Part shown: piece after piece, positions 1-47,860 of the stretch
Layout of the letters: the number at the start of each line of letters is the position of its first letter
Numbering within the stretch: position 1 is the first letter of the stretch
Origin: Candidatus Tiddalikarchaeum anstoanum
Lineage (GTDB): Archaea > Nanobdellota > Nanobdellia > Tiddalikarchaeales > Tiddalikarchaeaceae
Direction of reading: 5' to 3'
Length of the DNA stretch: 64,000 nt
Assembly (NCBI GenBank): GCA_902385255.1
Contig: CABMEV010000005.1
Coordinates: 1 to 64,000 of the forward strand
Made by a program: the position numbers and the translations under genes
Notes under the pieces: generated by a model
What the model was told of the DNA's origin: nothing
Databases searched by the model: none
What the model saw: only the letters and a program-made list of their open reading frames with translations

Positions 1-768
1 ACTGTACGCCTGCACTATTCTTGTGACATCGTAAAATTCTTTAGTCCAACAGTTCACTCCTGTTATGACTTGGCCTAAGTACCTGTCCTCGTTCTGGCAT
101 ATGATGTCAGGGAACGTCATTCCTCCTGCTCCTCCGCTGGTATTGTATTGTATCCACTTTGCCAGTTCTTCGCAGTCATACATGCAGTCGACTTTGTTGT
201 CCCCGTTCGGGTCGCAGCCTTCAGGACCTTCTGCCTTGTCACAAATAGGGTACGTCACTCCCTGCGTGGTGCTTACATATACGTCACTGTTGCTCTTATA
301 CACGCCAATATTTGTTGTCACACTCTGCCCGTTTTGCAGTACTACATAACTGTTATTGCTTGTCTCATCCCTTATGGTTATTTCATAGTATAATACTGGA
401 TAGGATGCGAATGGGTTTCCAGGATCCGCCGTTGCTGCACCGCTGACTAAATCATATCTTAAACAGTTCTTGTGGTTATAATCAAACACTTTACTGACAT
501 CTATTATGCCTGGAATCGCTCTTGAGAATGTGTAAATATTACCTCTTGAATAATAAGTTTCCACTCTTGAAAATGCAAAACAGTCAGGGCTTGCAATAAG
601 CCTCCTTCCATAATTGTAGTATATAGTGTCAACTTTTAATCCTTCAGCCCTGCCGCTCGAGCTGCTTATCAATGAAACGAATAATAGTGTGAAAGTGAGA
701 ATCCCGATTAATCCCATCAAGTGCATGAATATTATGTTTGTAATCTCAGTCTGAGCTTTCCTATGCAT
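1..768 (-). CDS. Partial (C-terminus off window) pilin-like secreted protein with class III-type signal
   Basis: Own translation from ATG at 768: MHRKAQTEITNIIFMHLMGLIGILTFTLLFVSLIS..., open to position 1; KAQ motif followed by hydrophobic helix; start overlaps stop of next upstream gene. Absent from ORF track because it runs off the window. Confidence 0.8.
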   Translation of the reverse strand, partial: MHRKAQTEITNIIFMHLMGLIGILTFTLLFVSLISSSSGRAEGLKVDTIYYNYGRRLIASPDCFAFSRVETYYSRGNIYTFSRAIPGIIDVSKVFDYNHKNCLRYDLVSGAATADPGNPFASYPVLYYEITIRDETSNNSYVVLQNGQSVTTNIGVYKSNSDVYVSTTQGVTYPICDKAEGPEGCDPNGDNKVDCMYDCEELAKWIQYNTSGGAGGMTFPDIICQNEDRYLGQVITGVNCWTKEFYDVTRIVQAYS

Positions 769-1990
769 TAACATCGTCGCACGCTCCTGTGAAAGTATTA
801 TACTTCGTCCCTGAAGCTTCGAGTGTGATAACTCCGTTCTTGTATGAATAGAATGGTTTTAGGCAGGAGCGAATGCTTGCTGAGTAGATGTAATTAGTGT
901 TCAAGTTATTGATTGCTTCAGCGCTGAACACTACGCTTGTTATGTTAACACACTGGTTTCTCGCAGTCATCGTTGATATATCAAAGCAGTAATCTATTAC
1001 GTAATCATTCAGGTTCATGATTAAACCGCTTATGTTAAGGTACTGTTTGACTCCTCTTGCGTAGTCGCCATTCATCATTATGCGCTCCTGGCATATGAGT
1101 TTAGGATTATTTGACGCGTCTGAGTATACGTGCCAGCGGTAGCCTTCCCTTAGCATTAATGCAGTTGCAGTGAAGGAGTCAGGAGTTAATGCATTGTCTT
1201 TGCCATCCCAGTCTTGCTTGAATGCGAATATCGTGTCCACTCCTGCTATATTTTTCACCAAGTTATGCACTTTGCTGCCGTCGCATGCCATATTGTAAAA
1301 ATCATTCAGTCCATCGAGGAAGTCTTTCAGGCTTGTTGGATTCTCAGGCCTCTCGCTCACCGTCTGGTAGTAATCATTAACGTTCGTCTTGGTTACAGTG
1401 AATGAGTAATCTTCAACATTGACGCTGTGCTTTTCATCCCTTAAAAAACTGAAGTCTAAAAAACTTGTTGGGAATTCTGACTGTTGGTAATCGCAGCTTG
1501 AGAATCCGCTAGTCGTGTAAGAGCAGAATTGGGCGTTAAAAAAAGGTATCCCAACATATCCGTAAGCAGGCACTTTCCTTGGGTAAGAATCTGCAGGTAT
1601 GCAAAAATGCCCGTTTCTCTCCCTGCACTTGTCAAAATCGTATTTCATATAAGTGTCATTGTACACGTATAATAATTCGTGGTCGACGAATACGTCATCT
1701 ATTACGACTGCTTCACCGCTGTAGCAGTGAAAGCTTTCTGAAGAGTTGCTTGGCTGTTTGTAATTCCATGTGCAGATACTAGGGCCGTAATAGTGCATCG
1801 TGACTTCTCCCGGCATCGTATAGGCTATATCATAAAGTGTGGCTATATCGTACGCTACTCCTCCTATAACTTTTGATATATCAAGTGCAGGCTGAAGATA
1901 ATAACCTCCAAGAAATACCGAGAGGGCAAGGGCTAATCCTACAGTGACTAAACTGAATACTGTGGTTAGAGAGATGCCTTCAACTGGCAT
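761..1990 (-). CDS. Pilin-like protein with N-terminal TM helix and large extracellular domain
   Basis: 409-aa ORF, N-terminus MPVEGISLTTVFSLVTVGLALALSVFLGG; Cys-containing ectodomain; co-directional in compact operon. Confidence 0.8.
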   Translation of the reverse strand: MPVEGISLTTVFSLVTVGLALALSVFLGGYYLQPALDISKVIGGVAYDIATLYDIAYTMPGEVTMHYYGPSICTWNYKQPSNSSESFHCYSGEAVVIDDVFVDHELLYVYNDTYMKYDFDKCRERNGHFCIPADSYPRKVPAYGYVGIPFFNAQFCSYTTSGFSSCDYQQSEFPTSFLDFSFLRDEKHSVNVEDYSFTVTKTNVNDYYQTVSERPENPTSLKDFLDGLNDFYNMACDGSKVHNLVKNIAGVDTIFAFKQDWDGKDNALTPDSFTATALMLREGYRWHVYSDASNNPKLICQERIMMNGDYARGVKQYLNISGLIMNLNDYVIDYCFDISTMTARNQCVNITSVVFSAEAINNLNTNYIYSASIRSCLKPFYSYKNGVITLEASGTKYNTFTGACDDVNA

Positions 1991-2050
1991 AATAAAGATT
2001 ATAAGTTAGGGAATTTAAAAGTGTTTAGTAGGTGTAAAATAACGTTTTTT

Positions 2051-3034
2051 TTATTGCGCGTCAGCAGTTATTGAACATGCAGCGCCTTGTGATGAATCTA
2101 TTTTTAGTACGAATGTTGTAATATCCATGCGTTTTGCTTCAGTCTTGGAGCCTGCGATGCCGATGAACACTCCGCGTCCTGAATTCATAGTGTTGCCGTG
2201 AAGGTATGGACATGAACACTCGCTTTTAGTTGGTATGGGTATGCATGTTAATACTTCAGTAAAGAGTCCTGCATTGCTTAATCCGTACAAATCCTGGAGG
2301 ATTGGCACTAATACGTCACCACTCTTAGTCTGCAAGTCAGAATTTCCATTATTCATGGTTAATATGTACTTGCCAGCGGAGCCGGAGTAATCAAAGCTGT
2401 ATGTACTTGTTGTCTCAAAGCATCGTCTGATAATGCCTGCCTCACTATTATCCGGACCTGTAAGTTGCTGTTTTAACTGGTCAACGCAGTATTTGAATGT
2501 GGCCATGTCGCTGCCTTTCCAGTTGGCATTATTCTGCGCGCATAAATCGAATCCTGCTTTATTAAACGTGTAAAGTCTTGGGAAACACATTGTATAACTG
2601 AAGTCTAAAAATGTTAAAAAGTCCATCTCGCTTCTTACTGCGCAAAAGCATGCTTTGCTGGAGCACCTCTGAAGCAGATTAGCATTATTTCTCGAGTTGA
2701 ATAATCCTTCATACATTTTCGATGAAGTGTTCAAATTCCCTTCATTGCTGTCAAACAATGAGGATAGTATAATAAATGTATTCCTTGGATAAGTGAATCT
2801 CATAGCGTTATTGTTTGGTATCACAACTTGCACCAGCGCGGTTTTAGCATCATACGTTATTCCTGCTATTGTGCTTATTGCACCTTTTGAGCATAAATCT
2901 GTGAAGAAATTATCAAGGTTGGCCTGTGATGACATTAAAAAATTGGCAGCTAATGCAACCAGTATTAAGAGCGTAGGTATGATTATGAAAAAGTTTACTA
3001 TATGCTGTAATGCTTCTGGTATCCATGCTGCCAA
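2051..3034 (-). CDS. Pilin-like / N-terminally anchored extracellular protein (start likely TTG at 3034, ORF open to 3079)
   Basis: ORF with N-terminal hydrophobic helix AAWIPEALQHIVNFFIIIPTLLILVALAANFL; in-frame TTG just downstream of the preceding gene's stop avoids a 43-nt overlap. Confidence 0.7.
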   Translation of the reverse strand: MAAWIPEALQHIVNFFIIIPTLLILVALAANFLMSSQANLDNFFTDLCSKGAISTIAGITYDAKTALVQVVIPNNNAMRFTYPRNTFIILSSLFDSNEGNLNTSSKMYEGLFNSRNNANLLQRCSSKACFCAVRSEMDFLTFLDFSYTMCFPRLYTFNKAGFDLCAQNNANWKGSDMATFKYCVDQLKQQLTGPDNSEAGIIRRCFETTSTYSFDYSGSAGKYILTMNNGNSDLQTKSGDVLVPILQDLYGLSNAGLFTEVLTCIPIPTKSECSCPYLHGNTMNSGRGVFIGIAGSKTEAKRMDITTFVLKIDSSQGAACSITADAQ

Positions 3035-3036
3035 AA

Positions 3037-4134
3037 TTATTGCACCTCTGCTGTTATGAATGTTGGTGTTGTATAACAAATGTTCGGGTTGGTAACATCC
3101 ATGCTGTGGTCATTATTATTAGACTGGAAGTATTCGACGTTGAACAATTTAAATATTATATCGCTGGCCCTGATGCTCTGCGTTGTGGTGCCAAGCTTCT
3201 GGCTTGCTGATATCATTGCGACAACTCCTGAAGGTCCTGAATTGTTTACGTAATTAAACAAGTAAGGTATCGCATTAGAGCTTGAGCCTATAGCGCAGTA
3301 ATTATTTTTTCCGGCAGTGGCTGCGAAACTAGCCATAGTCCTGCATTCTAATACTCTGTTTATGAATGAGAATTTCGTCTTCTCTGAGAAGTCCTGCAAT
3401 AATCTGACATTCACTTCATTAGTCTGCGACATGACGCTTGGCAGTATTAATATGTCATAATATTTCCCTCTCACTATGCTTCTCTTAATTGCATCATTCA
3501 TGTAACTTGTGCAGGCGCTGCAGATTCCTCCTAATTGTGATACTCCTGTGTTGCACGTGTTCATTATGGACCTTGGATCCCCTGTATTTGTTCTCGTGCA
3601 GCTGTCATAGTTTGAAACGTTTTGACCCCAGCAGAGTTCTACGCAAGCGTTTGGTTTTAAGTAATCCTGGTCGAATATGAGAAAACTTTCCATCTCTCCA
3701 AGGCATAAGCATACGTCGTTTACGCACTTGCTTAATTCTTTTCTCTTCACGTAGCCGTCATTCCATATATGGTTTCCTGTGCTTGATGCCCTGATATCAT
3801 TGAATAATCTGGTGCCGTCAGTGGCGTCCAAGTTTACAGCCACGCTGTTTAAGTGGCTGCCGTCATACTCATAGTAAGGTATTAATGCTTCAGTTGTGAA
3901 TGATGCAAAGAATAATACGTATTTCGGCGATAAGTACATGTTTGTTGCACCGCTCGTTCTTGAACTCATGGAGTCTGCAATTATCTCTCCTGTTCTTACA
4001 AATGTCGTGAACGCGCTGTCTCGTGCAATGCTCGTCACTGCACTGTTTAGGAGCATGTACCCTCCTAATATTGCTACGAATGTGAATAATCCCATGCTAA
4101 GTACTGTCAAGAATGCCGTTACTTCTGTAGCCAT
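3037..4134 (-). CDS. Pilin-like protein with N-terminal TM helix and Cys-rich ectodomain
   Basis: 365 aa, MATEVTAFLTVLSMGLFTFVAILGGYMLL..., multiple Cys. Confidence 0.78.
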   Translation of the reverse strand: MATEVTAFLTVLSMGLFTFVAILGGYMLLNSAVTSIARDSAFTTFVRTGEIIADSMSSRTSGATNMYLSPKYVLFFASFTTEALIPYYEYDGSHLNSVAVNLDATDGTRLFNDIRASSTGNHIWNDGYVKRKELSKCVNDVCLCLGEMESFLIFDQDYLKPNACVELCWGQNVSNYDSCTRTNTGDPRSIMNTCNTGVSQLGGICSACTSYMNDAIKRSIVRGKYYDILILPSVMSQTNEVNVRLLQDFSEKTKFSFINRVLECRTMASFAATAGKNNYCAIGSSSNAIPYLFNYVNNSGPSGVVAMISASQKLGTTTQSIRASDIIFKLFNVEYFQSNNNDHSMDVTNPNICYTTPTFITAEVQ

Positions 4135-4172
4135 TTAAATTAATTAAAAAAGGTATGTTGTTAAAAAGTTTT

Positions 4173-4361
4173 TTAATTGAATAAGCTGTTGGTTGTGGCG
4201 TTAAGTTCGTTGGTTGCTGAGCCTCCAACTTGTCCTATTCCTGAAAACATATTTGAAAGCTGCGGGAAAACTGCTGCGATTATTACAATTAGAGTTGTAA
4301 GCAGCAATATCACTACTACTATTGTCGCCATCGGCAACTCTGAAGCTTTTCGGTTTATCAT
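4173..4361 (-). CDS. Small type IV pilin-like protein
   Basis: Internal ATG at 4361 gives MINRKASELPMATIVVVILLLTTLIVIIAAVFPQ...; K-A-S-E-L-P class III-type cleavage region plus hydrophobic helix. Confidence 0.75.
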   Translation of the reverse strand: MINRKASELPMATIVVVILLLTTLIVIIAAVFPQLSNMFSGIGQVGGSATNELNATTNSLFN

Positions 4362-4374
4362 AAAAATAAAAAAT

Positions 4375-4866
4375 TTATATGTTCGCTGAACATTGTGGGT
4401 AAGTTGTACTAGTTCCAACTTCTGTATATTTATATACTGTTGAAGTAGTTCCACCAGAACTTATTACTTTTTGGCAAAATGTAGCTGTTGAAAGACTTCC
4501 TAATCTACATTGAGTGTAAGCACTTGAACAAAGCTCATTACTTGAAATTAAACCGCTGCCATCTAAGTCTGCACTAGAACAACAGAATGCTTTAATCTGG
4601 TTAATTAAAGTTGCATTAGTAGTGTATGAAGTAATTCCTCTATATTGAGTTTCTGTAACTTGCAAGTTTAATGTGTTACATTTGCTTCTGCAAGTTGATG
4701 TGAATGCTGTTGTGTCAACTTCACCTTGGCTTGGACCAAGACTTGTTAATCCTGATAACATATCTCCGCCTCCGAAGATAAGTACTCCACCAATGATTAA
4801 TAGTACTAACAGTGCTAGTGCACCTACAACGATCATGTTTAAAGATAACTCCTGTGTTTTTCTCAT
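4375..4866 (-). CDS. Type IV pilin-like protein with Cys-rich globular domain containing an EF-hand-type loop
   Basis: 163 aa; MRKTQELSLNMIVVGALALLVLLIIGGVLIF; Cys pairs; DLDGSGLISSNE 12-residue loop. Confidence 0.8.
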   Translation of the reverse strand: MRKTQELSLNMIVVGALALLVLLIIGGVLIFGGGDMLSGLTSLGPSQGEVDTTAFTSTCRSKCNTLNLQVTETQYRGITSYTTNATLINQIKAFCCSSADLDGSGLISSNELCSSAYTQCRLGSLSTATFCQKVISSGGTTSTVYKYTEVGTSTTYPQCSANI

Positions 4867-4893
4867 AAAAATATTGAGAGACCCTAGTTATTT

Positions 4894-5082
4894 TTAAATG
4901 TTACTAGTTGCGACAACGCCCTGAGTTGTACCGTTTAAGAAACCGAGAGTTCCCTGAACAATAGCCATCGGACCACCAGGGGTGCTGAATATGAAAATCA
5001 TCAGCGCAATTAATAATAATAATCCCGCCAGTAATGCTACTATAACACCCATTGGCAAACCAACATCTCCTTTGCTGTTCAA
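4894..5082 (-). CDS. Small pilin-like protein (TTG start)
   Basis: 62 aa; NSKGDVGLPMGVIVALLAGLLLLIALMIFIF; first codon is TTG at 5082, overlapping the preceding TGA. Confidence 0.7.
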   Translation of the reverse strand: MNSKGDVGLPMGVIVALLAGLLLLIALMIFIFSTPGGPMAIVQGTLGFLNGTTQGVVATSNI

Positions 5083-5225
5083 AATATTCCCTCCACGAAT
5101 CCTTTTATTAAATTAGCTATAGTGTCAATATTAGTTATTAGTCCTGCAATCAACACTATTAGCACGAATATTCCTATAATTAATAAAATTATCAGTACTG
5201 CCTGCTCAGGCAGGAATTCAACCAT
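5079..5225 (-). CDS. 48-aa micro-pilin / membrane peptide
   Basis: Own translation: MVEFLPEQAVLIILLIIGIFVLIVLIAGLITNIDTIANLIKGFVEGIF*; start and stop both overlap neighbouring genes; below ORF-track length cutoff. Confidence 0.7.
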   Translation of the reverse strand: MVEFLPEQAVLIILLIIGIFVLIVLIAGLITNIDTIANLIKGFVEGIF

Positions 5226-5367
5226 TCAAATCACCTATTGTCTGGTTAAGACTGTTAACCATGTTTTCCTGGCTTGAATTCACACCTGCTAAGAATATTA
5301 CAAAAACTAATAATGCCACTATTACGAAAATCATTACAACAACAAGACTTATCTGCGCTTTGTTCAT
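5218..5367 (-). CDS. 49-aa micro-pilin with KAQ class III-type signal
   Basis: Own translation: MNKAQISLVVVMIFVIVALLVFVIFLAGVNSSQENMVNSLNQTIGDLNG*; overlaps start of next gene. Confidence 0.75.
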   Translation of the reverse strand: MNKAQISLVVVMIFVIVALLVFVIFLAGVNSSQENMVNSLNQTIGDLNG

Positions 5368-5380
5368 CTTAAATTCCCTT

Positions 5381-6610
5381 TTATGAATATTTCTCATAAC
5401 ATATTACTATTGAGTCCTGCTTCCTTACTCCTATATACTCATTTACTCCCCAGCTTCCAGGGTCAAATATGTTAACCTGATTATCTCTTATTGGATGGAA
5501 GTTATTAAAAACATTAACATTCCCGCAAGCCTTGTAGTTATCACTTGCTGTCTGCATGGAAAGTAAGGTGCCCCAGTTGAAGTAGTCATAGAATGATATT
5601 GTTATCTTACCAGCGCCGTCTATAACTGCTGAATCATCATTAGGTGCAGTTTTTGAATGGTATCCTTCAACGTATCCCAATGAGCATAACGCATACGAGA
5701 ACGGCATGCATGCCGTCGAGTCAAGATTATGGAGCTGTAAGTGTTCATTAATAGTGCTTGGGTCTCTGCATGTCAGGCTTACAAGACTTGCCACCCTTTC
5801 ATTCTCACCTTCTATTACGAGATTGGAAGGTGATGTGTAATAATTATCTGAGTGCGAACCATTCCAGTAATCCCACATCTTATCATAAGGCGTGCATACC
5901 AGCATGCTCTCTTCGTAAGGCAAAAACCATGAATCAAAACACAGCTCTGTGCAGTTAGTTGTGTCAAACACTGAGCATAGAGGAATACAAAGAGGCCTAA
6001 TCAGTGATACTGGAGCGTTTCTTTTCGCACCGCAGCCGTTACGGCTTCCAAATACTGCAAATATGTCTCCGAGAGTTACAGGCTCCTTATAAGTTATATT
6101 ATATATTATTTCAGCGCAGTCAAAAATCCCGTTCTTTCCAATAGGATTCCTGTCACCTAAAGGCTTATTAGTCATTCCTTCAAAAAGAGTCCAGCAGCGC
6201 TCAACTTCGTAGGCGAATAATTGCCTTAAAACTTCAGGGTCATCTATAGGCCCGTAGCTTCCTTTGCTTACATAATTAAAGTTTGAATGTTTCTTGCAGA
6301 AAAAACTTGCAAGCCCCCACAGGTCTGAACCTATCATGCCGACGTTTTCAGTCTGTCCAAGCACTCCTGTTATCATGCTTTCATAAAAACCCCAGACTGC
6401 ATTGTTCGCATTCAATAATGCCGCGCATACGCCGTCATTCACTCCGTCAATTAATCCTCCTCCGAATCCTATAACTTTACTGTTTGTAAACAAATCAGTC
6501 GGTGCACAAGTTGTTGTTGAAACATTAACGAATGCTACTGCTATTATTGCGAGGATTAACGCTGACAGTACTAATCCTAATACTGTGACTGCAAAATCAG
6601 TAATATTCAT
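5381..6610 (-). CDS. Pilin-like protein with N-terminal TM helix and large Cys-rich ectodomain
   Basis: 409 aa, MNITDFAVTVLGLVLSALILAIIAVAFVNVSTTTC... Confidence 0.8.
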   Translation of the reverse strand: MNITDFAVTVLGLVLSALILAIIAVAFVNVSTTTCAPTDLFTNSKVIGFGGGLIDGVNDGVCAALLNANNAVWGFYESMITGVLGQTENVGMIGSDLWGLASFFCKKHSNFNYVSKGSYGPIDDPEVLRQLFAYEVERCWTLFEGMTNKPLGDRNPIGKNGIFDCAEIIYNITYKEPVTLGDIFAVFGSRNGCGAKRNAPVSLIRPLCIPLCSVFDTTNCTELCFDSWFLPYEESMLVCTPYDKMWDYWNGSHSDNYYTSPSNLVIEGENERVASLVSLTCRDPSTINEHLQLHNLDSTACMPFSYALCSLGYVEGYHSKTAPNDDSAVIDGAGKITISFYDYFNWGTLLSMQTASDNYKACGNVNVFNNFHPIRDNQVNIFDPGSWGVNEYIGVRKQDSIVICYEKYS

Positions 6611-8175
6611 GTTACCACCGTAACCGACTGGCTTATTGGCACGCTCTCTTCAGGATGCAATAATTCGTAAGGTATGTAAGGAGTGTAGCCTATTACTAAA
6701 TAATCATGCTTTCTGGAGATTGATTCGCTGCTTATACCCAATGCGCTGAACTGAGTAATATCATTGTCAACTTCAGGGAAGTAAGGCCAAGTGCCGTTAA
6801 GAGCTGCCTGAAGCCAATCAGTATAATCATAAAAACGTATATAAATTGTTCCTCTCCTAAGGATTGTAGACCTGTTAAAAGCGTAACTGTCATCTGAACT
6901 ATTATAAGTCATGTACGGATTTGATATTGGTGCATTCGTATCCACTCCGAATATTAATGCAACTAGTAAATCAAACACGTCGCTAATTATGCTTTTTCTC
7001 TTGTACATTAATTCATAAGGAGTTATGAATCCTGGATACCTGAACAAACTGCTAAGCTCTGGAGTTGCATCATATAAGAATCCGTTAGCTGTCCGTTTAA
7101 GGTTGCAGCTGTACTGGTTGCAGACAGAAAGTGATGTACAATTAACTTCACAATAATTATAATCTGTAAAACTAGTGGCTACGCTTGCGCACTCCCTCAT
7201 GCACAAGTCATTCTTGAACTGGGCAAATATTGGCTCCCTGTTTGATTTTTTAAACGCATTTTGTATCTCGGACGTCACTGTTTTCCATTTGCTTACAGTA
7301 TCTGTCTGCGAAAGGTTTAAACTCCACAAGTTTACCGCACTCTCTCTTAGTGACAAGCACTTTGTTGTAAACAAATCCAAGAATGAGAAGGAGTTATCAA
7401 TGGAGCAGGAGTAATAACTGTAAAGTGTAGGGTCTGCCCCAGTTTCCCAATTGTCATCAATGTAATGGTTAACGTATCCCTCCAGAATGCCTGTGCTCGT
7501 TTTACTGTGGCAGTTCATTCTTGAAGACTGCTCAGTAGTGTAATAGTAATAGTTCGGGTTAAGGCAGAATCTGAAATAATTGTCATAATTGAAAGTGTTA
7601 TACTTGTTATATGTGTAAGTTCCAAAAATACTAGCCAAGTTTGTCAGCCTGTCATCAACGGTGTTTACCTCATCGCCATAGTCAAAATTTTTGTCAAAAT
7701 TACTATTGTTCAATATCTTGTCGTAAACTTTCATCAGGTCTATATAGTGTTCGCCGTCGTCAGGCACGTCGTATATTATCACGCTGCATAAGAAACTGGC
7801 ATATGGAAATAACCCGTTAAGTTTTCCTCCTCCAAATTTGTTGAAGCATTCAACAGCCTTGTTTGCTATCATTTCCTCCACATTTTCAGTGTCAGGCTTA
7901 ACTACTACTGCTTCAGTCTTGCACATTAAAGGAATGGAGTTGAAAACCTTGGTTGGTATAACTGCTCTTGCAATTCCTGAGAATCCTCCGAATAAGTTTG
8001 CGAACATGCTTCGCACCGTGACTGTGGTAGAGCAGAAACTGTTACCCAGGAATGATGATGCAAGATTTGACAGGCTGAAAACGACAAATAATACGACTAT
8101 GATAAAGAAGAGGTAGCCTATTAACTGCACCAAATCGAATCCGAACTGCGCTTTATTGTTTAAATCTTTAATCAA
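6607..8175 (-). CDS. Pilin-like protein with class III-type signal and large ectodomain
   Basis: 522 aa, MIKDLNNKAQFGFDLVQLIGYLFFIIVVLFVVFSLSNLAS...; KAQ motif; 4-nt overlap with the following gene. Confidence 0.82.
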   Translation of the reverse strand: MIKDLNNKAQFGFDLVQLIGYLFFIIVVLFVVFSLSNLASSFLGNSFCSTTVTVRSMFANLFGGFSGIARAVIPTKVFNSIPLMCKTEAVVVKPDTENVEEMIANKAVECFNKFGGGKLNGLFPYASFLCSVIIYDVPDDGEHYIDLMKVYDKILNNSNFDKNFDYGDEVNTVDDRLTNLASIFGTYTYNKYNTFNYDNYFRFCLNPNYYYYTTEQSSRMNCHSKTSTGILEGYVNHYIDDNWETGADPTLYSYYSCSIDNSFSFLDLFTTKCLSLRESAVNLWSLNLSQTDTVSKWKTVTSEIQNAFKKSNREPIFAQFKNDLCMRECASVATSFTDYNYCEVNCTSLSVCNQYSCNLKRTANGFLYDATPELSSLFRYPGFITPYELMYKRKSIISDVFDLLVALIFGVDTNAPISNPYMTYNSSDDSYAFNRSTILRRGTIYIRFYDYTDWLQAALNGTWPYFPEVDNDITQFSALGISSESISRKHDYLVIGYTPYIPYELLHPEESVPISQSVTVVT

Positions 8176-8181
8176 ATTTTT

Positions 8182-8352
8182 TCACTTCGTATTTAAGGTC
8201 ATCCAAAAACCTGACAGCCAACCTAAAAACATAGGTCCATAAGTTTTGAAAACAACATTAATTAAAAACATAATCATTATAAACACAGCCATAGCCATAA
8301 CTATAATCTTTACCACCTCTCCAAGTGAAATATTCCCTGCAGCTTTTCTCAT
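8182..8352 (-). CDS. 56-aa pilin-like membrane peptide
   Basis: Own translation: MRKAAGNISLGEVVKIIVMAMAVFIMIMFLINVVFKTYGPMFLGWLSGFWMTLNTK*; ATGA overlap with upstream gene stop; not in ORF track. Confidence 0.72.
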   Translation of the reverse strand: MRKAAGNISLGEVVKIIVMAMAVFIMIMFLINVVFKTYGPMFLGWLSGFWMTLNTK

Positions 8353-10481
8353 CTCACACACCAGTATATTGTTTTTTCCACTTGGTTATTTGAAATATCT
8401 GCATCTTTTATAACTATTTCACTGTTATATTTCTCGATTACTTTTTTAGGAACCAGTTCAGAGTTGCAGAATAAGTACCTCGTGGTTGTAGTGGTCTCGC
8501 AGCCGCTGCAAATCTGTGACGAGAAACGGGCAACGCAAGTATAATTCGGCAAAGTTATGCAGTTGTCCATGTCATTGGTTGTTTCGGTCACGGCATCGTA
8601 GTGCAACGTGCTGGTATCATTTTGTCCTGTAGTCGAGTTATAATTAGTGATAACTTCATCTCTCGCATCCAAATGGTATGTTACATCATAAACGACTTTC
8701 GGAATTGCGCAAGTTCCTGATTGGAGTGCGAATCCTGTGAAGCTTCCTGTTGAGCATGCAAAGTTGGTAGTGCTGCTCTCTCTTGGGCAGTAACAAGTAT
8801 CAGTTCCTACGCTTACAGGATTACAGTTTAATCCTTCAAAGCCTTTTAGTACAGTTCCTTCAAACCATAAAGGTGTTATCTTATCTATAGGCCTAATGAG
8901 AGCGTCTTCGAAATTATGCGTTGGGCTTACAGTAGTGACAACTCCTCCTTCCACTACGTTGAAAACGAGTCTGCTTCCGTCGGATGCGTAAACATTAAAG
9001 TCCTGTACGGGTGATTGGTACACCACAAAATGTTCAGCATCTGTTGTTCTTATAATATGATGATTCGTGTCGTACTCGTAAACAGGCATTGAAGAACTAT
9101 TTATCAAATAAGTGATACTGTTGTCATAATCGTATTCTATGCTCACTCTCATCTTTCCCTCTGAGCAGTCATATAAGTCTGCAGCTTCGGCCATTAAACC
9201 GTTACGCATCCTGTGAGCTTGGCTTAAATCAACGAGCGCTGAAAAATTAGAGAATGCTCCCACATTAAAAGAGTTATATGATGGCAGAGCCGCGGTTTGA
9301 ATTATCATCTTGTCAAATCCTATCTCGTGATAAGCACCCAAACTATCTGTTATTTCAAATTTCAATTTCATGCTGACATCATTATACTTATTAGCTAAGT
9401 CTATACGCAATAAGTTTGGATTAAACCATGACTCTAAAGGCTGATTAGTCCCTCTCTCATTGCAGACTTCACAATAAAGGTCAGTGCATGTCTCGTTATA
9501 ACCTATTGTTGTATTGCAGCACTTAGAAGGGCCGTTATCGCATGGAGGAGTGGTGCAATAATAAGTATATCTGGTTTCGTAATGACCCCAACAACAAGTG
9601 GTTGGTATCCAAGGAAGACAGTACCAATCACAGACATAGTATGGATTTTCAGGAGGTGAAGGGCTAGGTTTATTGCAGCAGCCCTGTTCGTATCCGCAGA
9701 TTGTACCGTTGCATACATTTGCATATATTGGTGTCTGCGTGCATTCCTCGCCGCACACTTCATTATTGCATACTATTGTATGGTCCCAGCTTCTGTTAAT
9801 TGTGCACGGAGCATTAGAGTCAAACATTCCGTTCATGCACATGTTTCCAATGCTCGGATCAGTCGGAGGATAAAAACAGAAGGATGCATTAAACGAGTAC
9901 TCATTATTGTCAACAACACTTTCGTTGAATATTGAGCTTGCAATACCTGCTCCTAACGTTATCTCTGACGTGCAGTTAAAAAAAGGGAGCAGAAGGATTT
10001 CCGGATAAGTATTGCTGCCAGACCCTATTGTTCTTGGCAGAGTAACTGGATAACTGTATAATCTTTGTGCCAGGACTTCCAGCCCGTTTATCCTCTCCTT
10101 GGTGCATGAACTCGGACTGGCTCCGCACTTCTCATAAGTCATGTATGGAGTTACGCTGATTCTCGCATCAGCCGAGGGAGGTATTGATGTTCTTTTGAAT
10201 CCGTAATTAAACTGGTAGCCTGTAGTTGAATTAATCACTGAATACTTTGTTGGGTCCACATTGAAGATGTTGCCCTCCCTGTAAGTTGTAATATAAACCA
10301 CATCTAATCCGCTTAGCTGCTGGGAATAGATTGTCCTGTTGAAGAAGTCTATGTTCTGGCTTGCAACGTTATTTCCCAAGAATAAGAACACTGCAGATGC
10401 CAGCATGAATAAGAATATCACTGCTGTCAAGAAATTTCCAAGGTCTATCTGCGCTGTTTGATTCATGGCTATTTTACTCAT
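8349..10481 (-). CDS. Large pilin-like protein with Cys-rich ectodomain
   Basis: 710 aa; MNQTAQIDLGNFLTAVIFLFMLASAVFLFL N-terminus; central segment rich in CC/CxxC motifs. Confidence 0.82.
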   Translation of the reverse strand: MSKIAMNQTAQIDLGNFLTAVIFLFMLASAVFLFLGNNVASQNIDFFNRTIYSQQLSGLDVVYITTYREGNIFNVDPTKYSVINSTTGYQFNYGFKRTSIPPSADARISVTPYMTYEKCGASPSSCTKERINGLEVLAQRLYSYPVTLPRTIGSGSNTYPEILLLPFFNCTSEITLGAGIASSIFNESVVDNNEYSFNASFCFYPPTDPSIGNMCMNGMFDSNAPCTINRSWDHTIVCNNEVCGEECTQTPIYANVCNGTICGYEQGCCNKPSPSPPENPYYVCDWYCLPWIPTTCCWGHYETRYTYYCTTPPCDNGPSKCCNTTIGYNETCTDLYCEVCNERGTNQPLESWFNPNLLRIDLANKYNDVSMKLKFEITDSLGAYHEIGFDKMIIQTAALPSYNSFNVGAFSNFSALVDLSQAHRMRNGLMAEAADLYDCSEGKMRVSIEYDYDNSITYLINSSSMPVYEYDTNHHIIRTTDAEHFVVYQSPVQDFNVYASDGSRLVFNVVEGGVVTTVSPTHNFEDALIRPIDKITPLWFEGTVLKGFEGLNCNPVSVGTDTCYCPRESSTTNFACSTGSFTGFALQSGTCAIPKVVYDVTYHLDARDEVITNYNSTTGQNDTSTLHYDAVTETTNDMDNCITLPNYTCVARFSSQICSGCETTTTTRYLFCNSELVPKKVIEKYNSEIVIKDADISNNQVEKTIYWCVR

Positions 10482-12553
10482 TTAACTCCCGTTGCGACAG
10501 CTATGTCTGCAAGTCCCGTAAATATCATGGTAGTAACTGAAACTATTAAAATATATGCAGTTGTCGCTATCAGCAGCGTTTTTGCGCACCTGTCCATGAA
10601 GTAAATCTTGTCTCCTGCGAATTCTATCTGGTTGACTAAGTACACCATTAATGCAACAACGATAACTAAGTATACTCCAACTATTGGCTGAAATTCCCAG
10701 ACTTTGACGCTGCTGCTTAAGTTCAGGAATCCCAATACGAAATCAATGTTCATTCCTCCAGCACCTGAGACATCCCCTGCTCCCCCTGATAATGAGCTAA
10801 TCTGCTGGCCTAAATTGCTGAGTATTAAGAATATCATTGTTGACAATCCGACAACTACGCCTGTTATTAATGGTGCAATAAAGTTAGCCTGGAATACTAA
10901 GCTGCTTATAGTCTCGCTAAGGATATCATTTATTTTCTCATTAATATTCCTTATTGCCTTAGTATACCTTCCTATGTTTGCCATGCTCATGCTCGCAGCC
11001 TCCGCTGATTCCTGGCTTGAGCTCACTAAGATTCTCATTATGCTGTTTACCAGCATTGAAGGGTACATATTGATTGCCCCGTTTTCAGAATCAAAGATTG
11101 CATTCTCAACATCCAATCCTAACTGTGAAATATTATTGCTTATCTTTTCAAAGAATGCGTAAATAGACGAGCTTTTCATCTCCTCTGCAGTTTTTACAAG
11201 CGTTTGTTCAAGAGGGCGTCCTTCACCCATCATGTTTGAGATTATGAACGCCGCATTTGTGAAATCTTCCTCTACGCTTCCAACAAGCCTTCTGATTTTC
11301 ACCCTTTGGAAAGAGTATAAGTAAAAATAAGCTACTGCTGTAAGCATTAATCCAATAACTATTGGGAGCGAACCAAACACGTCATTCTTTGAAGGAGGAA
11401 GCCCCTGCACGCTGTAAATGTATAACAAAAATATACCAACACCAGCAATCAGTGTGAATATTGAGAATATGTATGCAGGAAAGGCTAATTTTTTATTGCC
11501 GGATTTTATGAAAAATTTTCCTTCAGGAGGCACATCAGGGTGTTTTGAGATGTCAGGAATAGGGAAGCCTACAGGCCTGGAACCTAATACTTTGTTTATG
11601 AAAAATACTAATATTACAGGGAGCACTAAGTCGTAGAAGAAGAATATCATGTCAGGAGTGATTAAGTCAGCCATGAAAGCGCTAATCATTGGAAGCATAA
11701 CTAAACCAAGTATTGGGAGTGTTATTCCAATTAAGCTTACTGCCTGAACAGGGGACCTTAAACTGTTTGCGTATTTCACCATCGAATCGTAAGTCCCGTT
11801 AAGTATGGTGTCAACTGCTAAGTCTAATGTTTCGTAGCGCCTTTTCTCATCCAACTGGTGAAGCGCTGATAATACGAGCTGCATGGCGTCGACGAACGGC
11901 GGATTTCTCTCCCTCCAAGTCTGCAGGAATACATTCATCGCGTCATATAAGTCCCTGCTTTTTCTTGTCTGAACATTCCATAATAATAGTTTGAAATCGT
12001 TGCCTAAAGGCCCAGTCAGATTAGTGCTTGCGAATTTTATTGCACCTTCAATGTTGGGCGTGTGGCGCATATATATCACTACGTATAATACTCCAAGCAC
12101 CATCTCGCTTGTCTCCTCAAGTATGTTCTTAGTTGCATTATTCTTTGCATAATTCCTGACATAAGTGTAAGCGTAGAAAGCGACAGGCAGTCCTGCAAAT
12201 GAGAACATTGAATTCGTTAACAGTATAAGTAAGACTGATATGAATAATCCTGCAATTAATACTATTATGCTTAGCCCCGTCACTTCGCCAGGCGTAACAT
12301 TAAGCCCTGAAGCTATTATGTCTTTCTGCAAATTTTCAGTCTCGCTTCGTGAGAGTGATATTTTGAATATTCCGCCGACGCTCTTACAGAGCCTCTCGTA
12401 CCAGCTCTTCCTCTCAACTTTCTCATTAAGAAAAGTCTTATACTCAAAACTCTTGCTTTCGCCTCCGAGTGTTATCTCTTTGCGCAGGCTGTCCCTGTTT
12501 ACTTTGCCTTTGTCATAATCGTCAAATAAGTTGTCCGCCACGTTTTCTGACAA
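10478..12553 (-). CDS. Type II secretion system F / TadC / FlaJ-like membrane platform protein (two modules)
   Basis: 691 aa polytopic; two repeated helical-plus-TM modules (for example EEDFTNAAFIISNMMGEGRPLEQTLVKTAEEM); adjacent to ATPase. Confidence 0.85.
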   Translation of the reverse strand: MSENVADNLFDDYDKGKVNRDSLRKEITLGGESKSFEYKTFLNEKVERKSWYERLCKSVGGIFKISLSRSETENLQKDIIASGLNVTPGEVTGLSIIVLIAGLFISVLLILLTNSMFSFAGLPVAFYAYTYVRNYAKNNATKNILEETSEMVLGVLYVVIYMRHTPNIEGAIKFASTNLTGPLGNDFKLLLWNVQTRKSRDLYDAMNVFLQTWRERNPPFVDAMQLVLSALHQLDEKRRYETLDLAVDTILNGTYDSMVKYANSLRSPVQAVSLIGITLPILGLVMLPMISAFMADLITPDMIFFFYDLVLPVILVFFINKVLGSRPVGFPIPDISKHPDVPPEGKFFIKSGNKKLAFPAYIFSIFTLIAGVGIFLLYIYSVQGLPPSKNDVFGSLPIVIGLMLTAVAYFYLYSFQRVKIRRLVGSVEEDFTNAAFIISNMMGEGRPLEQTLVKTAEEMKSSSIYAFFEKISNNISQLGLDVENAIFDSENGAINMYPSMLVNSIMRILVSSSQESAEAASMSMANIGRYTKAIRNINEKINDILSETISSLVFQANFIAPLITGVVVGLSTMIFLILSNLGQQISSLSGGAGDVSGAGGMNIDFVLGFLNLSSSVKVWEFQPIVGVYLVIVVALMVYLVNQIEFAGDKIYFMDRCAKTLLIATTAYILIVSVTTMIFTGLADIAVATGVK

Positions 12554-14813
12554 CCTCCTTCATCCAGTCTTCAAACAAGGCAAGCATGTCTTTACTTTCA
12601 GGGTATCCTTGTTCATCTTTTAACTTCTCGAATATTTTATGGTAATAATCATTAGCTACTATTACGAAATCACTCTCTAACAAGTCAGGCATTTTATAAT
12701 CATTCGCGAATTTCAATATTGTTTCAACTATTTTGCCTCTTAGCATTATTTCTTCCCAGACTAAATCCCACTTCCCTGCCCACTCCCTCACGTTTCCTGC
12801 AATGTTCTTTAATATCTCGCTGTCTCCTTCAAGGAGTGCCCTGTCTGGTTTTAATTTATCTTCTTTAGCATCATAAGTCATTAAGCTTACAAAACCTTTC
12901 TCCCTCATTGGGTCATCTTCCCAGTGTTTTCTGATTTCAACTATATTCGTAATTCGTCTCCTTTCTGTTAAGCCGTCAGGGCTTTTTAGTTTCTGGGCGA
13001 TCATTATTATATCTGTTGCTTTGAAGCTTGTTCTTGGAACTTTCAGGTCATTTACTACACGGTCGAAGATACCGTAAGCTGAGTCTCCATGTATTGTTCC
13101 TGCAACAACGTTGGCTAATGCTCCAACCCTCATTGCTTCATACAGCGCTACAGCTTCTGTGCTTCTTACTTCTCCAACTATTAATGCACTGTCTCCAAGT
13201 CTTAGTGTTGTTCTGATTCCGTCTGTCGCGTTCATCTCGTTGCTTGTTCCTGCAAGAGCGGATCCGACTTTCATTGATAATATGTTGTAATTCATGTCCC
13301 TAAGATAAGTCACTGGTAGTTCCAGCGTATCTTCAACTACGATTATTCTGAATTTTCTCATTATCTGGACGAGGCATGCTGCCAAGATGCTTGATTTTCC
13401 AGCACCTCTAGTTCCTGCAACGAGTATTGTTCTTGACCCGTCTATTAAGAACCAAAGTAGTCCTGCAGCAAGAGGTGTCATGCTTTTATACTTGACTAGC
13501 AAGTGGAACGTGAATGGTTTCTCCCTGTGTCTTCTGAAAACAAAAGTTAGCCCGTTGGGTGATAATGGCTCCTGCACTATGCTGACACGGGCTCTTATGA
13601 ACTCAGTCTCGAGTTCCGTGTCAAGTACTGGATTTGCGTCATCAAGTGGTCTGCCGCTCATCATTCTAAAACGGCTGGCCCATCCTTTAGCGTCACGAAC
13701 GTTTGGTATAATATTGGTTTTTAATTCTCCGTACTCGGCGTGCTTTAATATTATAGGCACTCTTCCAACAGGGGGGTTTACGTAAATATCTTCTACTTTC
13801 TCGTCTTCTAATAATAATTCTATGAGTCCGAACCCTACTGTTAATCTGACTAGTATTCTTGCCAGTGTTTCTATTTTTTGGAATGAAACTTTCAGGTTTC
13901 TTTGTTTTGCAACTTCCTGCAATAAGTCCCTGCTTAGTTTGAAGAATACATCACGCATCCTTTTGGAGTCTGTGAACTCTTCCTCTCTCGGTTTATGTTT
14001 TGCAAGTATGTCCCTGGCCCCGTTTAATAATTCGTACTCCTCATCTGATAATGCAAACTCTGGCGGGTGAATATAATATTTTTTTGTTACGTCCTCGGGC
14101 ACGTCGTATATTATTACTTCACTCTTGTCTTTTTTTCCAATCTCGTAAGTTTCGACTTCCTGCGCTTTTAACGGCGGGTCCATGACGAGCCTTGCGTACA
14201 TGAAGTTCGGCTTTATTGAGGGTTCAAAGAGTTCCCTGTATATTTCTCTCTCTCCAATCTTGTATCCTGGCAGCCGGTCTTTTAACTGCTGCATCATCTG
14301 AGTCTTACTTAATTCGTCAACGATTGTTGAAAGTTTGAGTATTTGTAAATCGCTTAATTTCTTTAACTGGGTGTTTAATCCTTCATTTCTCGCTTTCTCC
14401 TCCCTTAACTCCCTTATTGCCTTAACGTAAGCGCCGATTGGGTCTCGTTTAAACCTGGAGAGTATTATATCCTTCATCACGCTTAAGTGCTCTATAAGCA
14501 ATTTCTGAGCCTGAGGCTCCTCCACTAAAGGATACTTCATTATTTCAAATTGTTGCTCTAATTTGAGGTATACTTGTGCCACTTCATCGAGAAGTTCTGT
14601 CTGCTCGTATGGGTAAATATAATTCTGGTCGCTGGATAGTATGATATTTGTAACGCCGCCTATTTCGATTAATTTGTTAATAATCATCTCCATGCAGTGT
14701 TCAGAATCTTCTATGCTTGGGTAGTATATGCAGCCGACGCAGTTTATCCTAAGGTTCCTCTCGGAGCCTTCACGCTCTACTTCAAAATCTTCACAAGTGT
14801 TTTGGCCTGCCAT
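12522..14813 (-). CDS. Type II/IV secretion system ATPase (TadA/FlaI/PilB superfamily)
   Basis: Walker A VAGTRGAGKSS, Asp box VVEDTLELP, ALIVGEVRSTEA Walker B, GTIHGDSAYGIFDRVVNDL His box. Confidence 0.95.
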   Translation of the reverse strand: MAGQNTCEDFEVEREGSERNLRINCVGCIYYPSIEDSEHCMEMIINKLIEIGGVTNIILSSDQNYIYPYEQTELLDEVAQVYLKLEQQFEIMKYPLVEEPQAQKLLIEHLSVMKDIILSRFKRDPIGAYVKAIRELREEKARNEGLNTQLKKLSDLQILKLSTIVDELSKTQMMQQLKDRLPGYKIGEREIYRELFEPSIKPNFMYARLVMDPPLKAQEVETYEIGKKDKSEVIIYDVPEDVTKKYYIHPPEFALSDEEYELLNGARDILAKHKPREEEFTDSKRMRDVFFKLSRDLLQEVAKQRNLKVSFQKIETLARILVRLTVGFGLIELLLEDEKVEDIYVNPPVGRVPIILKHAEYGELKTNIIPNVRDAKGWASRFRMMSGRPLDDANPVLDTELETEFIRARVSIVQEPLSPNGLTFVFRRHREKPFTFHLLVKYKSMTPLAAGLLWFLIDGSRTILVAGTRGAGKSSILAACLVQIMRKFRIIVVEDTLELPVTYLRDMNYNILSMKVGSALAGTSNEMNATDGIRTTLRLGDSALIVGEVRSTEAVALYEAMRVGALANVVAGTIHGDSAYGIFDRVVNDLKVPRTSFKATDIIMIAQKLKSPDGLTERRRITNIVEIRKHWEDDPMREKGFVSLMTYDAKEDKLKPDRALLEGDSEILKNIAGNVREWAGKWDLVWEEIMLRGKIVETILKFANDYKMPDLLESDFVIVANDYYHKIFEKLKDEQGYPESKDMLALFEDWMKEVVRKRGGQLI

Positions 14814-14907: not shown

Positions 14908-15324
14908 ATGGCACTCCCTCCCGAACAACAAAAATCTCCTTCTGGAATGACTGGACAAGCTGCTCCTTCTCAAGAGACCAGCATGGCCAGCATGATTATC
15001 CAAAGATTAAATGAGGTCAATACGAGGATTAGACTTGCTGAGGAAAGATTGGAGCAGAACAAGGAGCGTCTCCGTGTTTTTGATGACCAGATGTTAAGCA
15101 TTCGTGAAAATATTAACGGTGACATAACTAAAATCAATGCGCAGATTGAAGATATGAGAAAAAGTATTAAAAACATCGATGATACAATACATCATATTAT
15201 AAAGGAGTTGGAATTAACTGCTAAAAAGCAGGAGTTGACTGTTATTGAAAAATACGTTGACATGATGGATCCGACTCGTTACGTGACAAAGGAAGAATTA
15301 CAGAGGTTGTTAAAAAATGCCTGA
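14908..15324 (+). CDS. Coiled-coil protein, possibly FlaC-like accessory component
   Basis: 138 aa, heptad-rich (RLNEVNTRIRLAEERLEQNKERLRVFDDQML...); divergent from ATPase gene. Confidence 0.6.
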   Translation: MALPPEQQKSPSGMTGQAAPSQETSMASMIIQRLNEVNTRIRLAEERLEQNKERLRVFDDQMLSIRENINGDITKINAQIEDMRKSIKNIDDTIHHIIKELELTAKKQELTVIEKYVDMMDPTRYVTKEELQRLLKNA

Positions 15325-16042
15325 AGGTATACCTATACAAAAAGTCGTTGATATGAAAGGCAGAAATGCGGATAATAATGCTATTATTGAAGCGTTAAGA
15401 AGCGAGGGTTATTCTTTTCAGCAGATTCGTGATGCTATCCAGCAGGCAGATTTGAAAAAGACAATTACTGTTTCTCCTGGTGCTCCTATTCCTCAAAGTT
15501 ATCCTCAACAGCAGATTATGACTTCACCGCAGCAAAATACTGCTCAAAGGCCGCCTATGCCACAACAGCAAATGCAGGTAAATCCTGTTCAAGCTCCACA
15601 GATGGCTCAGCAGCAAATGATGCAGGCGCCCCAGCCGCAAGGTCCTTCTCGCCGCAGTGTTGACCTTGATGAGGTGCAGAGAGTTCTTGAGGAGATAATT
15701 GAGGAGAAGTGGAAGGAGAGCGAGGGGCAATTAATTAAGATTAATGAATGGAGAGCTGTTGTTAATTCCAAGATTAAAGAGTTCGAGACTAGGATTTCGG
15801 AATTAAACACTCGTATTGACAGCTTCAACACTGTTCTTGTAAAGAAGGCTGAAAGTTTCGATGAGACTATGCGTAATGTTGACACTGAGATTCAAGCATT
15901 AGAAAAGAGCCTGAACAAGCTTGTTCCAATATTATCTGACAATATCAGCGAGTTAAGAGGAGTCATTACTGACTTGAGAAAAGATCAGCCTAAAGCTGAA
16001 AATCCTCCAATGAGGGATATTAGAACTAGCACGTTATTATAA
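15317..16042 (+). CDS. Protein with N-terminal helical (UBA-like) motif, Pro/Gln-rich linker and C-terminal coiled coil
   Basis: 241 aa; IIEALRSEGYSFQQIRDAIQQADL then PQQQ-rich segment then coiled coil; 8-nt overlap with previous gene. Confidence 0.65.
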   Translation: MPEGIPIQKVVDMKGRNADNNAIIEALRSEGYSFQQIRDAIQQADLKKTITVSPGAPIPQSYPQQQIMTSPQQNTAQRPPMPQQQMQVNPVQAPQMAQQQMMQAPQPQGPSRRSVDLDEVQRVLEEIIEEKWKESEGQLIKINEWRAVVNSKIKEFETRISELNTRIDSFNTVLVKKAESFDETMRNVDTEIQALEKSLNKLVPILSDNISELRGVITDLRKDQPKAENPPMRDIRTSTLL

Positions 16043-16056
16043 AAAAAAATATTTTT

Positions 16057-16626
16057 TTATTTCTTTTGCGTTATCATGTAAGTTATTGCTGCCATTATTG
16101 CAAGTATTAATATCGCTCCTGCTACTTGCGGCTGTGCAAGCACTATTGCTGGATTCGCCAAGTCTTCAGGTGTTATCTCATTGCTTGCAGGTCCTATTGT
16201 TCCTGTAAAATTCGTTCTGCCTACTATGAAATCCAATCCTCCATTCAGTCCAACCATTACTAATACGAAGAGTAATAATAATACAGGTATGAACACTGCC
16301 GGCTGCTGCAATATATTTACTACAAAGTCAGGTTTCACTCCAACCCATTCGAGCAGTAATAATCCTACGAATATGAAAAAAGCAGCTACTATTATTATGG
16401 GTATAAAATTTAGCAAGAAATTCCTGAGGGACCAACTTAGTGTGACTATTATTCCAACGCCTATTGCTACCATTGAGTTAACGTCGTGCCTGTCTTTTCC
16501 GAATATCTGGCTTTTTTCCAGCATTCCGTAAAGCGCTGCTGCACCTATTATGAATGGTACGACTACATCAAAGATGCCTATCCTGTTTATTACATCCAAT
16601 GCTTGTCCTGCTACTGTTTCAACCAT
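16057..16626 (-). CDS. Polytopic membrane protein, paralog of 17313..17981
   Basis: 189 aa; IGIFDVVVPFIIGAAALYGMLEKSQIFG. Confidence 0.75.
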   Translation of the reverse strand: MVETVAGQALDVINRIGIFDVVVPFIIGAAALYGMLEKSQIFGKDRHDVNSMVAIGVGIIVTLSWSLRNFLLNFIPIIIVAAFFIFVGLLLLEWVGVKPDFVVNILQQPAVFIPVLLLLFVLVMVGLNGGLDFIVGRTNFTGTIGPASNEITPEDLANPAIVLAQPQVAGAILILAIMAAITYMITQKK

Positions 16627-16668
16627 ATATTTATTATGACCTTTTATTTTTTATAAACTCTGTGGATT

Positions 16669-17283: not shown

Positions 17284-17312
17284 TATGTTTTACCTTTTAA
17301 AAAAATTCAATT

Positions 17313-47834: not shown

Positions 47835-47860
47835 TTCTTTTTTTTCACCTCTTTTCTTCT

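What the first reader, a model, noticed from the sequence alone, without database searches (positions are those of the whole stretch)
1..14813. Compact archaeal filament/secretion operon with an unusually large set of giant and micro pilin-like subunits
Seen: one minus-strand run in which most genes touch or overlap, comprising a T2SE-family ATPase, a two-module TadC/FlaJ-like platform, and at least 13 single-TM N-terminally anchored proteins. Six or more have KAQ/RKA/KTQ/SKG class III-like signals. Ectodomains reach about 670 aa and are Cys-rich. Established: archaeal type IV filaments (archaella, adhesive pili) normally have small subunits. Inference: the large Cys-rich subunits may be tip adhesins, or the system may be a specialised attachment/secretion device in a host-dependent archaeon.
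Basis: partly seen in the sequence, partly recalled or inferred. Interest (0 to 1): 0.78.

Follow-up and report, generated by a model that had tools for sequence, protein, structure and literature searches.

The report
DPANN archaeal pilus with modular subunits
A tiny, probably host-dependent archaeon carries a very large gene set for a hair-like surface fibre built from many different subunits; relatives have fused sugar-binding domains or bacterial-cell-wall-cutting enzymes onto such subunits, so the fibre is probably a grappling or attack device rather than an ordinary hair.

Summary
Window 1-14813 (minus strand) encodes a T2SSE-type ATPase, a divergent two-module TadC-like platform and 13 N-terminally anchored proteins, packed head to tail. 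The contig end cuts the operon: its last gene continues on another contig with four more proteins, giving about 24 kb that ends at alba-FKBP-ftsZ-secE-nusG, much as in relatives. ATPase, platform and two divergent coiled-coil genes fit a locus already reported across 'cluster 2' DPANN archaea (Hamm 2024); about 100 of 111 class genomes have the ATPase. The pilin/adhesin array is the new part. Five class III subunits behave as pilins (N-terminal helix conserved 71-82%, ectodomain 42-49%); others are plain anchors or Sec-exported. The 710-aa subunit is modular: one relative splits it into a small pilin plus a Sec-type 1024-aa protein; another's copy carries a LamG lectin domain. In eight relatives from seven families, SLT or amidase murein hydrolases sit on at least three different pilin-like stubs within these arrays. 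Best reading: a heteropolymeric type IV filament presenting interchangeable adhesin or enzyme modules for contact with other cells. Function is inferred; the window's own modules match nothing known.

The parts
12522..14813 (-). Assembly ATPase (763 aa, VirB11/CpaF/T2SSE family, Walker A GTRGAGKS intact)
   Evidence: Pfam T2SSE 1.2e-19; PDB best afGspE 2oap 4.8e-30, FlaI 1.6e-20, CpaF 4e-20; ortholog at 39-76% identity in about 100 of 111 class genomes
10478..12553 (-). Divergent two-module TadC/FlaJ-like platform (691 aa, 8-9 TM)
   Evidence: weak T2SSF; hhalign 96% to TadC for module 1, E=0.005 for module 2; found next to the ATPase in nearly all relatives read
8349..10481 (-). 710-aa modular pilin-like protein, 36 Cys: N-terminal pilin-like module (1-243) plus distal module (353-565, 669-710)
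   Evidence: N part homologous to a 237-aa class III protein, distal part to a separate 1024-aa Sec-type protein of G002; the G003 ortholog carries LamG 8e-24. The window copy has TAQ in place of KAQ
8182..8361 (-). Micro pilin-like protein (59 aa, RKAAGNISLGEVV)
   Evidence: ORF, TM 19-37; a 50-70 aa micro protein occurs near this slot in many relatives
6607..8175 (-). 522-aa anchored protein, KAQ class III-like, 14 Cys
   Evidence: the G002 ortholog (484 aa) lacks KAQ, N-terminus 43% identical: pilin nature uncertain
5381..6610 (-). 409-aa N-anchored protein without class III motif, 16 Cys
   Evidence: N-terminus 23% vs ectodomain 45% identical to ortholog: plain anchor
5218..5397 (-). Micro pilin-like protein (KAQISLVVV)
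5079..5225 (-). 48-aa single-TM protein, no clear class III motif
4894..5082 (-). Micro pilin-like protein (62 aa, KGDVGLPMGVIV)
   Evidence: ortholog in G002
4375..4866 (-). Candidate major pilin (163 aa, KTQELSLNMIVV, 8 Cys)
   Evidence: family A1 (KAQGLPxN, 6-8 conserved Cys) found in 217 of 234 class genomes; N-terminus 82% vs 42% conserved; AlphaFold2 helix 9-43 with high confidence in its core, head not resolved
4173..4361 (-). Micro pilin-like protein (about 62 aa from MINRKASELPMATIVV)
   Evidence: start codon chosen by motif
3037..4134 (-). 365-aa N-anchored protein, 12 Cys, no K/R class III motif
   Evidence: N-terminus 53% vs 42%: uncertain
2051..3079 (-). 342-aa N-anchored protein, 12 Cys (start uncertain)
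   Evidence: N-terminus 20% vs 39%: plain anchor
761..1990 (-). 409-aa pilin-like protein (EGISLTTVFSLV), 12 Cys
   Evidence: N-terminus 71% vs 43% conserved; KAQVDIALTIG-type relatives in G039, G012, G032
1..774 (-). 5' part of a ~400-aa pilin-like protein (RKAQTEITNIIF), cut by the contig end; 3' part on contig C2
   Evidence: window part aligns to residues 2-234 and C2 part to 233-326 of the G002 ortholog; N-terminus 73% vs 49%
14908..15324 (+). Divergent coiled-coil gene 1 (138 aa)
   Evidence: conserved beside the ATPase in relatives; FlaC_arch only at E=0.11
15317..16042 (+). Divergent coiled-coil gene 2 (241 aa)
   Evidence: conserved beside the ATPase in relatives
16057..17981 (-). Three small 5-TM proteins (189, 204, 222 aa), possible accessory membrane components
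   Evidence: similar genes next to the locus in G001, G002, L038, G219; role unknown

Best explanation
This is a DPANN-specific type IV filament system, probably a pilus. The ATPase and platform drive assembly of a filament whose core is made from class III pilins processed by the genome's prepilin peptidase (probable main subunit: the 8-Cys KTQ/KAQGLPxN protein). A large set of further pilin-like subunits, several of them modular (pilin stub plus disulfide-rich distal module), is built in at the tip or along the shaft. Sec-exported giant Cys-rich proteins from the same operon probably dock on it, as PilY1 does in bacteria. Several other products are plain membrane anchors that may form the base. 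The device makes contact with neighbouring cells; in relatives the same kind of slots carry a lectin (LamG) or murein hydrolases (SLT, Amidase_2), so the module set probably sets the partner: archaeal or bacterial surface, or cell wall. Shown: gene content, synteny, orthology, domain grafts. Inferred: filament formation, tip location, adhesion, enzymatic action on bacteria.
For: ATPase and platform homology; DPANN clade of the ATPase apart from FlaI, GspE and CpaF at 100/100; A24 prepilin peptidase in the genome at C5:67220; class III motif enrichment; pilin-type N-terminal conservation in five operon subunits, 71-82% vs 42-49%; small pilin family in 217/234 genomes; arrays of 9-22 anchored proteins beside the platform in many class genomes; pilin/secreted-protein fission of the 710-aa subunit; LamG in the ortholog; murein hydrolase domains on class III stubs in G080, G056, G205, G219, G086, G061 and on an anchored stub without K/R motif in G110 and G208, at three or more different slots; PKD, beta-propeller and 3-keto-disaccharide hydrolase domains in the giant of G009.
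Against: The window's own ectodomains match no Pfam or NCBIfam family and, where tried, no PDB sequence, and its genome has no SLT/amidase match. AlphaFold2 did not resolve a pilin head (pLDDT 56) or the distal module (pLDDT 40). The A1 profile hits PDB pilins only at E about 0.3. The 710-aa window copy has lost the basic residue of the signal. No expression or imaging data.
Confidence: 0.7

Rival explanations
1. A pseudopilus-type secretion device: the pilins form a short piston that exports the giant Cys-rich proteins or hydrolases instead of a long surface fibre.
For: Sec-exported giants lie in the same operon; many minor-pilin-like proteins, as in T2SS; an archaeal cell needs no secretin.
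Against: Modules are covalently joined to pilin-like stubs at several slots, which suits display rather than release; a class-wide small pilin with several copies suits a fibre.
Confidence: 0.15
2. A cell-envelope or S-layer complex (for example the cone of the Nanobdellota attachment organelle) whose components use pilin-like anchors but do not form a helical filament.
For: Many different large disulfide-rich proteins in near-single-copy genes; proteins of the attachment organelle are unknown (PMC11420986, PMC11104419).
Against: Array, assembly ATPase and platform are linked; pilin-type N-terminal constraint. G022, a 668,961-bp single-contig genome of about the size expected for Nanobdella (identity not confirmed), has ATPase and platform but no array beside them.
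Confidence: 0.1
3. An archaellum variant.
For: FlaI-like ATPase; coiled-coil proteins with a weak FlaC_arch match (E=0.11).
Against: FlaI equivalog score 138.6 against cut-off 550; no archaellin in the genome; tree separates it from FlaI.
Confidence: 0.02

Closest known systems
Cluster-2 DPANN type IV pilus-like locus with CpaF, TadC and two coiled-coil proteins (Hamm et al. 2024, PMC11291902, 'Locus 2')
   Same: ATPase, TadC platform and two coiled-coil genes in the same neighbourhood, in the same archaeal groups
   Different: The published text describes no array of pilin-like and giant proteins, no modular pilins and no enzyme modules; the figure could not be viewed
Modular type IV pilins (PilB/PilC of Streptococcus sanguinis; Raynaud et al. 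2021, PMC8179133; review PMC10191384)
   Same: A functional module grafted on a small pilin; the LamG/ConA lectin (PF13385) is one of the frequent bacterial grafts
   Different: Archaeal class III pilins, many per operon, very Cys-rich; murein hydrolase grafts are not in the passages read
Euryarchaeal clade 1 and clade 2 T4P (Makarova et al. 2016, PMC4858521)
   Same: Multiple minor pilins, some 250-550 aa, with large putative adhesins
   Different: Different ATPase group (afGspE and FlaI fall outside); one fused two-module platform instead of two TadC genes; no linkage to alba-ftsZ-nusG described; up to 22 anchored proteins
PilY1/PilC tip adhesins of bacterial T4aP (PMC10191384)
   Same: Large multi-domain non-pilin proteins that cap the fibre
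   Different: No sequence similarity detected; the role here is by analogy only

Membership tests
Type IV filament superfamily | T2SSE/VirB11-like assembly ATPase | tested here: met
Type IV filament superfamily | T2SSF/TadC-type platform | tested here: met
   sub-threshold by Pfam; module 1 supported by hhalign at 96%, module 2 weak
Type IV filament superfamily | Pilins with class III signal and conserved N-terminal helix | tested here: met
   cleavage itself not tested
Type IV filament superfamily | Prepilin peptidase | tested here: met
   PF01478 at C5:67220-67573, 40.5 bits; not in the operon
Type IV filament superfamily | Forms a helical filament | not testable with these tools
   needs imaging
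Hamm 2024 cluster-2 DPANN T4P-like locus 2 | CpaF + TadC + two coiled-coil proteins in one locus | tested here: met
   coiled-coil proteins recognised by sequence and Pfam coiled-coil hits, not by direct comparison with the published NAR1 proteins
Hamm 2024 cluster-2 DPANN T4P-like locus 2 | Found in cluster-2 DPANN | tested here: met
   ATPase relatives named Woesearchaeota and Parvarchaeota; 1.16-Mb genome
Archaellum | FlaI equivalog ATPase | tested here: not met
   138.6 bits vs cut-off 550; tree
Archaellum | Archaellin (PF01917) | tested here: not met
   no match in own genome; control rings in 4 archaea
Archaellum | FlaH next to FlaI/FlaJ | tested here: inconclusive
   no gene of that kind seen between ATPase, platform and array, but FlaH was not searched for with a model
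Modular pilins | Pilin module fused to a separable functional module | tested here: met
   710-aa protein vs split pair in G002; LamG in the G003 ortholog. Function of the window module unknown

The most novel reading that the evidence does not exclude
The locus is the genetic basis of a class-wide DPANN contact device: a heteropolymeric pilus with interchangeable modules (lectins, murein hydrolases, giant disulfide-rich adhesins) that lets these archaea grip and, in some lineages, breach bacterial cell walls. It may supply parts of the DPANN attachment organelle, whose proteins are unknown.
Probability: 0.35. Interest if true: 0.85.

Novelty: new variant of a known kind. Interest (0 to 1): 0.62.

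Why it matters
How DPANN archaea recognise and attach to partners is open; the proteins of their attachment organelle are unknown (PMC11420986). This locus gives a concrete, widespread gene set, a candidate main pilin, and a reason to look for bacterial as well as archaeal partners, because murein hydrolases on pilin-like stubs would be useless against partners without murein. Murein hydrolases of Woesearchaeota and other archaea were reported before (PMC9723730, PMC12352652), but term searches of both main texts found no mention of pili or pilins. The lectin and enzyme modules can be expressed and assayed directly.

Tried and rejected
Archaellum: rejected. A retraction motor: the second, related ATPase on contig C4 was considered as a PilT analogue, but in G005 it has its own platform and pilins next to it, and in several relatives a MinD-type ATPase nearby, so it is more likely a duplicated pilus ATPase. 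Structure prediction of the small pilin and of the distal module of the 710-aa protein was too uncertain for fold searches, so none was run. PDB sequence searches of the platform, the 522-aa and the 1221-aa proteins gave nothing usable. The ribonuclease hit of the A1 profile (E=1e-4) was judged, without a further test, to be a composition/Cys-pattern artefact. The association of hydrolases with arrays is partly selected: of the nine regions fetched, four were chosen because a pilin or ATPase hit lay on the same contig; of the five chosen without that, three were in arrays.
Full report
Setting. The window is bases 1-64000 of contig C5 of a 1.16-Mb genome in 13 contigs, 94% complete. ATPase relatives with names are Woesearchaeota and Parvarchaeota, so the organism belongs to the Nanoarchaeota-class DPANN archaea.

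Observation. The minus strand of 1-14813 holds 15 tightly packed genes: ATPase, platform, and 13 N-terminally anchored proteins of 48 to 710 aa. The ATPase is T2SSE, nearest in the PDB to afGspE, then FlaI and CpaF. The platform is so divergent that T2SSF scores only 12.7 bits, but a 12-sequence profile aligns its first half with TadC proteins of the same genome at 96% probability and its second half weakly.

The operon is longer than the window. The gene at 1-774 is cut by the contig end. Its remainder, and four more genes (132, 969, about 640 and about 1200 aa), lie at the start of contig C2; the two pieces align to adjacent parts of one G002 gene. In this genome and in the seven relatives read that far, the array is followed by an FKBP-type isomerase gene and mostly by ftsZ and nusG, with alba and secE seen in part of them. 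These gene names rest on recognisable sequence and order; they were not checked with HMMs.

Which subunits are pilins. Strict class III motifs are enriched in the operon (5/16 vs 0/36 controls, p=0.0017). A second test separates pilins from plain anchors: between this genome and G002 the first 45 residues are 71-82% identical and the rest 42-49% in five class III subunits (163 aa, 409 aa at 761-1990, about 404 aa, 132/198 aa and 969 aa), while in the 409-aa (5381-6610) and 342-aa proteins the N-terminus is less conserved (20-23%) than the ectodomain (39-45%). This is expected if the N-terminal helix of the first set packs in a filament core. The last two proteins on C2 have Sec-type signals by eye. 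The 163-aa protein belongs to a family with motif KAQGLPxN and 6-8 conserved Cys present in 217 of 234 class genomes; its N-terminal helix is predicted with high confidence. It is the best candidate for the main pilin.

Distribution. The ATPase ortholog occurs in about 100 of 111 class genomes sampled. Downstream of the platform, the number of anchored proteins ranges from 0 to 22 in about 40 genomes; the giant, Cys-rich form (subunits up to 2777 aa) occurs in a subset that includes this genome. In the tree, ATPases of this locus form one DPANN group (73/94 support, with a related duplicate as neighbour), cut off at 100/100 from FlaI, GspE, CpaF and two other ATPases of the same genome; long branches on the outside make the details there unsure.

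Modularity. In G002 the 710-aa protein is replaced by two neighbours: a 237-aa class III protein matching residues 6-243 and a Sec-type 1024-aa protein whose end matches residues 353-565 and 669-710 (E=4e-29 and 3e-9). In G003 the ortholog (29% over the N-terminal 210 residues) carries a LamG/ConA-like lectin domain (8e-24). A Pfam scan of 101 array proteins found SLT, Amidase_2, PKD and MopE-type domains. Follow-up located SLT and/or Amidase_2 on anchored array proteins of G080, G056, G205, G110, G219, G086, G208 and G061, seven families in all; in six of them the platform lies on the same contig. The enzymes sit on at least three stub types: the last array slot (G205, G086, G061; the similar stub of G080 and G208 lacks an enzyme), the slot after the first micro protein (G110, G208), and the slot after the small pilins (G056, G080, G219). 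SLT copies keep the catalytic ES motif and amidases the HHT/HYT and later His positions, by eye (sequences). The G110 and G208 stubs lack a K/R class III motif.

Reading. The evidence favours a heteropolymeric type IV pilus in which pilin stubs display exchangeable modules. For the window itself the modules are unidentified, and its genome has no SLT/amidase match, so a lytic role must not be carried over to this organism; adhesion is the safer guess.

Known and new. Hamm et al. 2024 (PMC11291902) described two conserved T4P-like loci with CpaF, TadC and coiled-coil proteins across these lineages; the window's core fits their locus 2. Large minor pilins and tip adhesins are known or proposed in archaea (PMC4858521), modular pilins in bacteria (PMC8179133), and murein hydrolases in Woesearchaeota and other archaea (PMC9723730, PMC12352652). 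I found no paper that joins these: the array, its modular subunits and the hydrolase grafts in DPANN appear undescribed in the open library searched, which lacks most subscription papers and all preprints.

Noticed in passing
G017 (L038/L133), G019, G076, G078, G084 ATPase genes: The orthologous ATPase ORF is 1092-1966 aa with the match broken near residues 484-550: probable inteins in this secretion ATPase.
   Followed up: no
G000 contig C2:777 and C2:801 (L091): The 132-aa pilin gene has two in-frame stops (TAG, TGA), after which homology to the 198-aa G002 ortholog goes on in the same frame: truncated gene or assembly error near the contig start.
   Followed up: partly
G000 C4:66248-66805 (L061); relatives L099-L106: A second ATPase, neighbour of this one in the tree, is found in the big-array lineages beside a coiled-coil gene, a class III protein, often a MinD-type ATPase, and in G009 a thermosome-like gene; in G005 it has its own platform and pilins.
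   Followed up: partly
G000 C12:33488 (L059) and C3:60839 (L060): Two further T4P loci with split TadC pairs; C12 has SALEYLITYGWAI pilins and an 828-aa class III protein, C3 a 948-aa one.
   Followed up: no
window 18046-25704 (-): Two large soluble proteins (1516 and 1035 aa, no Pfam hit) between the 5-TM genes and a 428-aa membrane/coiled-coil protein; shorter genes of the same kind in the same place in G002.
   Followed up: no
window 44050-48775 (-): Cluster of single-TM or secreted proteins with a 578-aa protein bearing a subtilase-like HGTHVAG motif.
   Followed up: no
L085 (G009), L088 (G029): Arrays end in secreted proteins of 2777 and 2115 aa with over 100 Cys; the G009 one has beta-propeller, PKD, 3-keto-disaccharide hydrolase and a weak Hint domain.
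   Followed up: partly
L161:1433-3208 (-) and L156:8373-9992 (+): Further possible murein enzymes in arrays: a 3D (MltA-like) domain (4e-10) and a sub-threshold M15 peptidase match.
   Followed up: no
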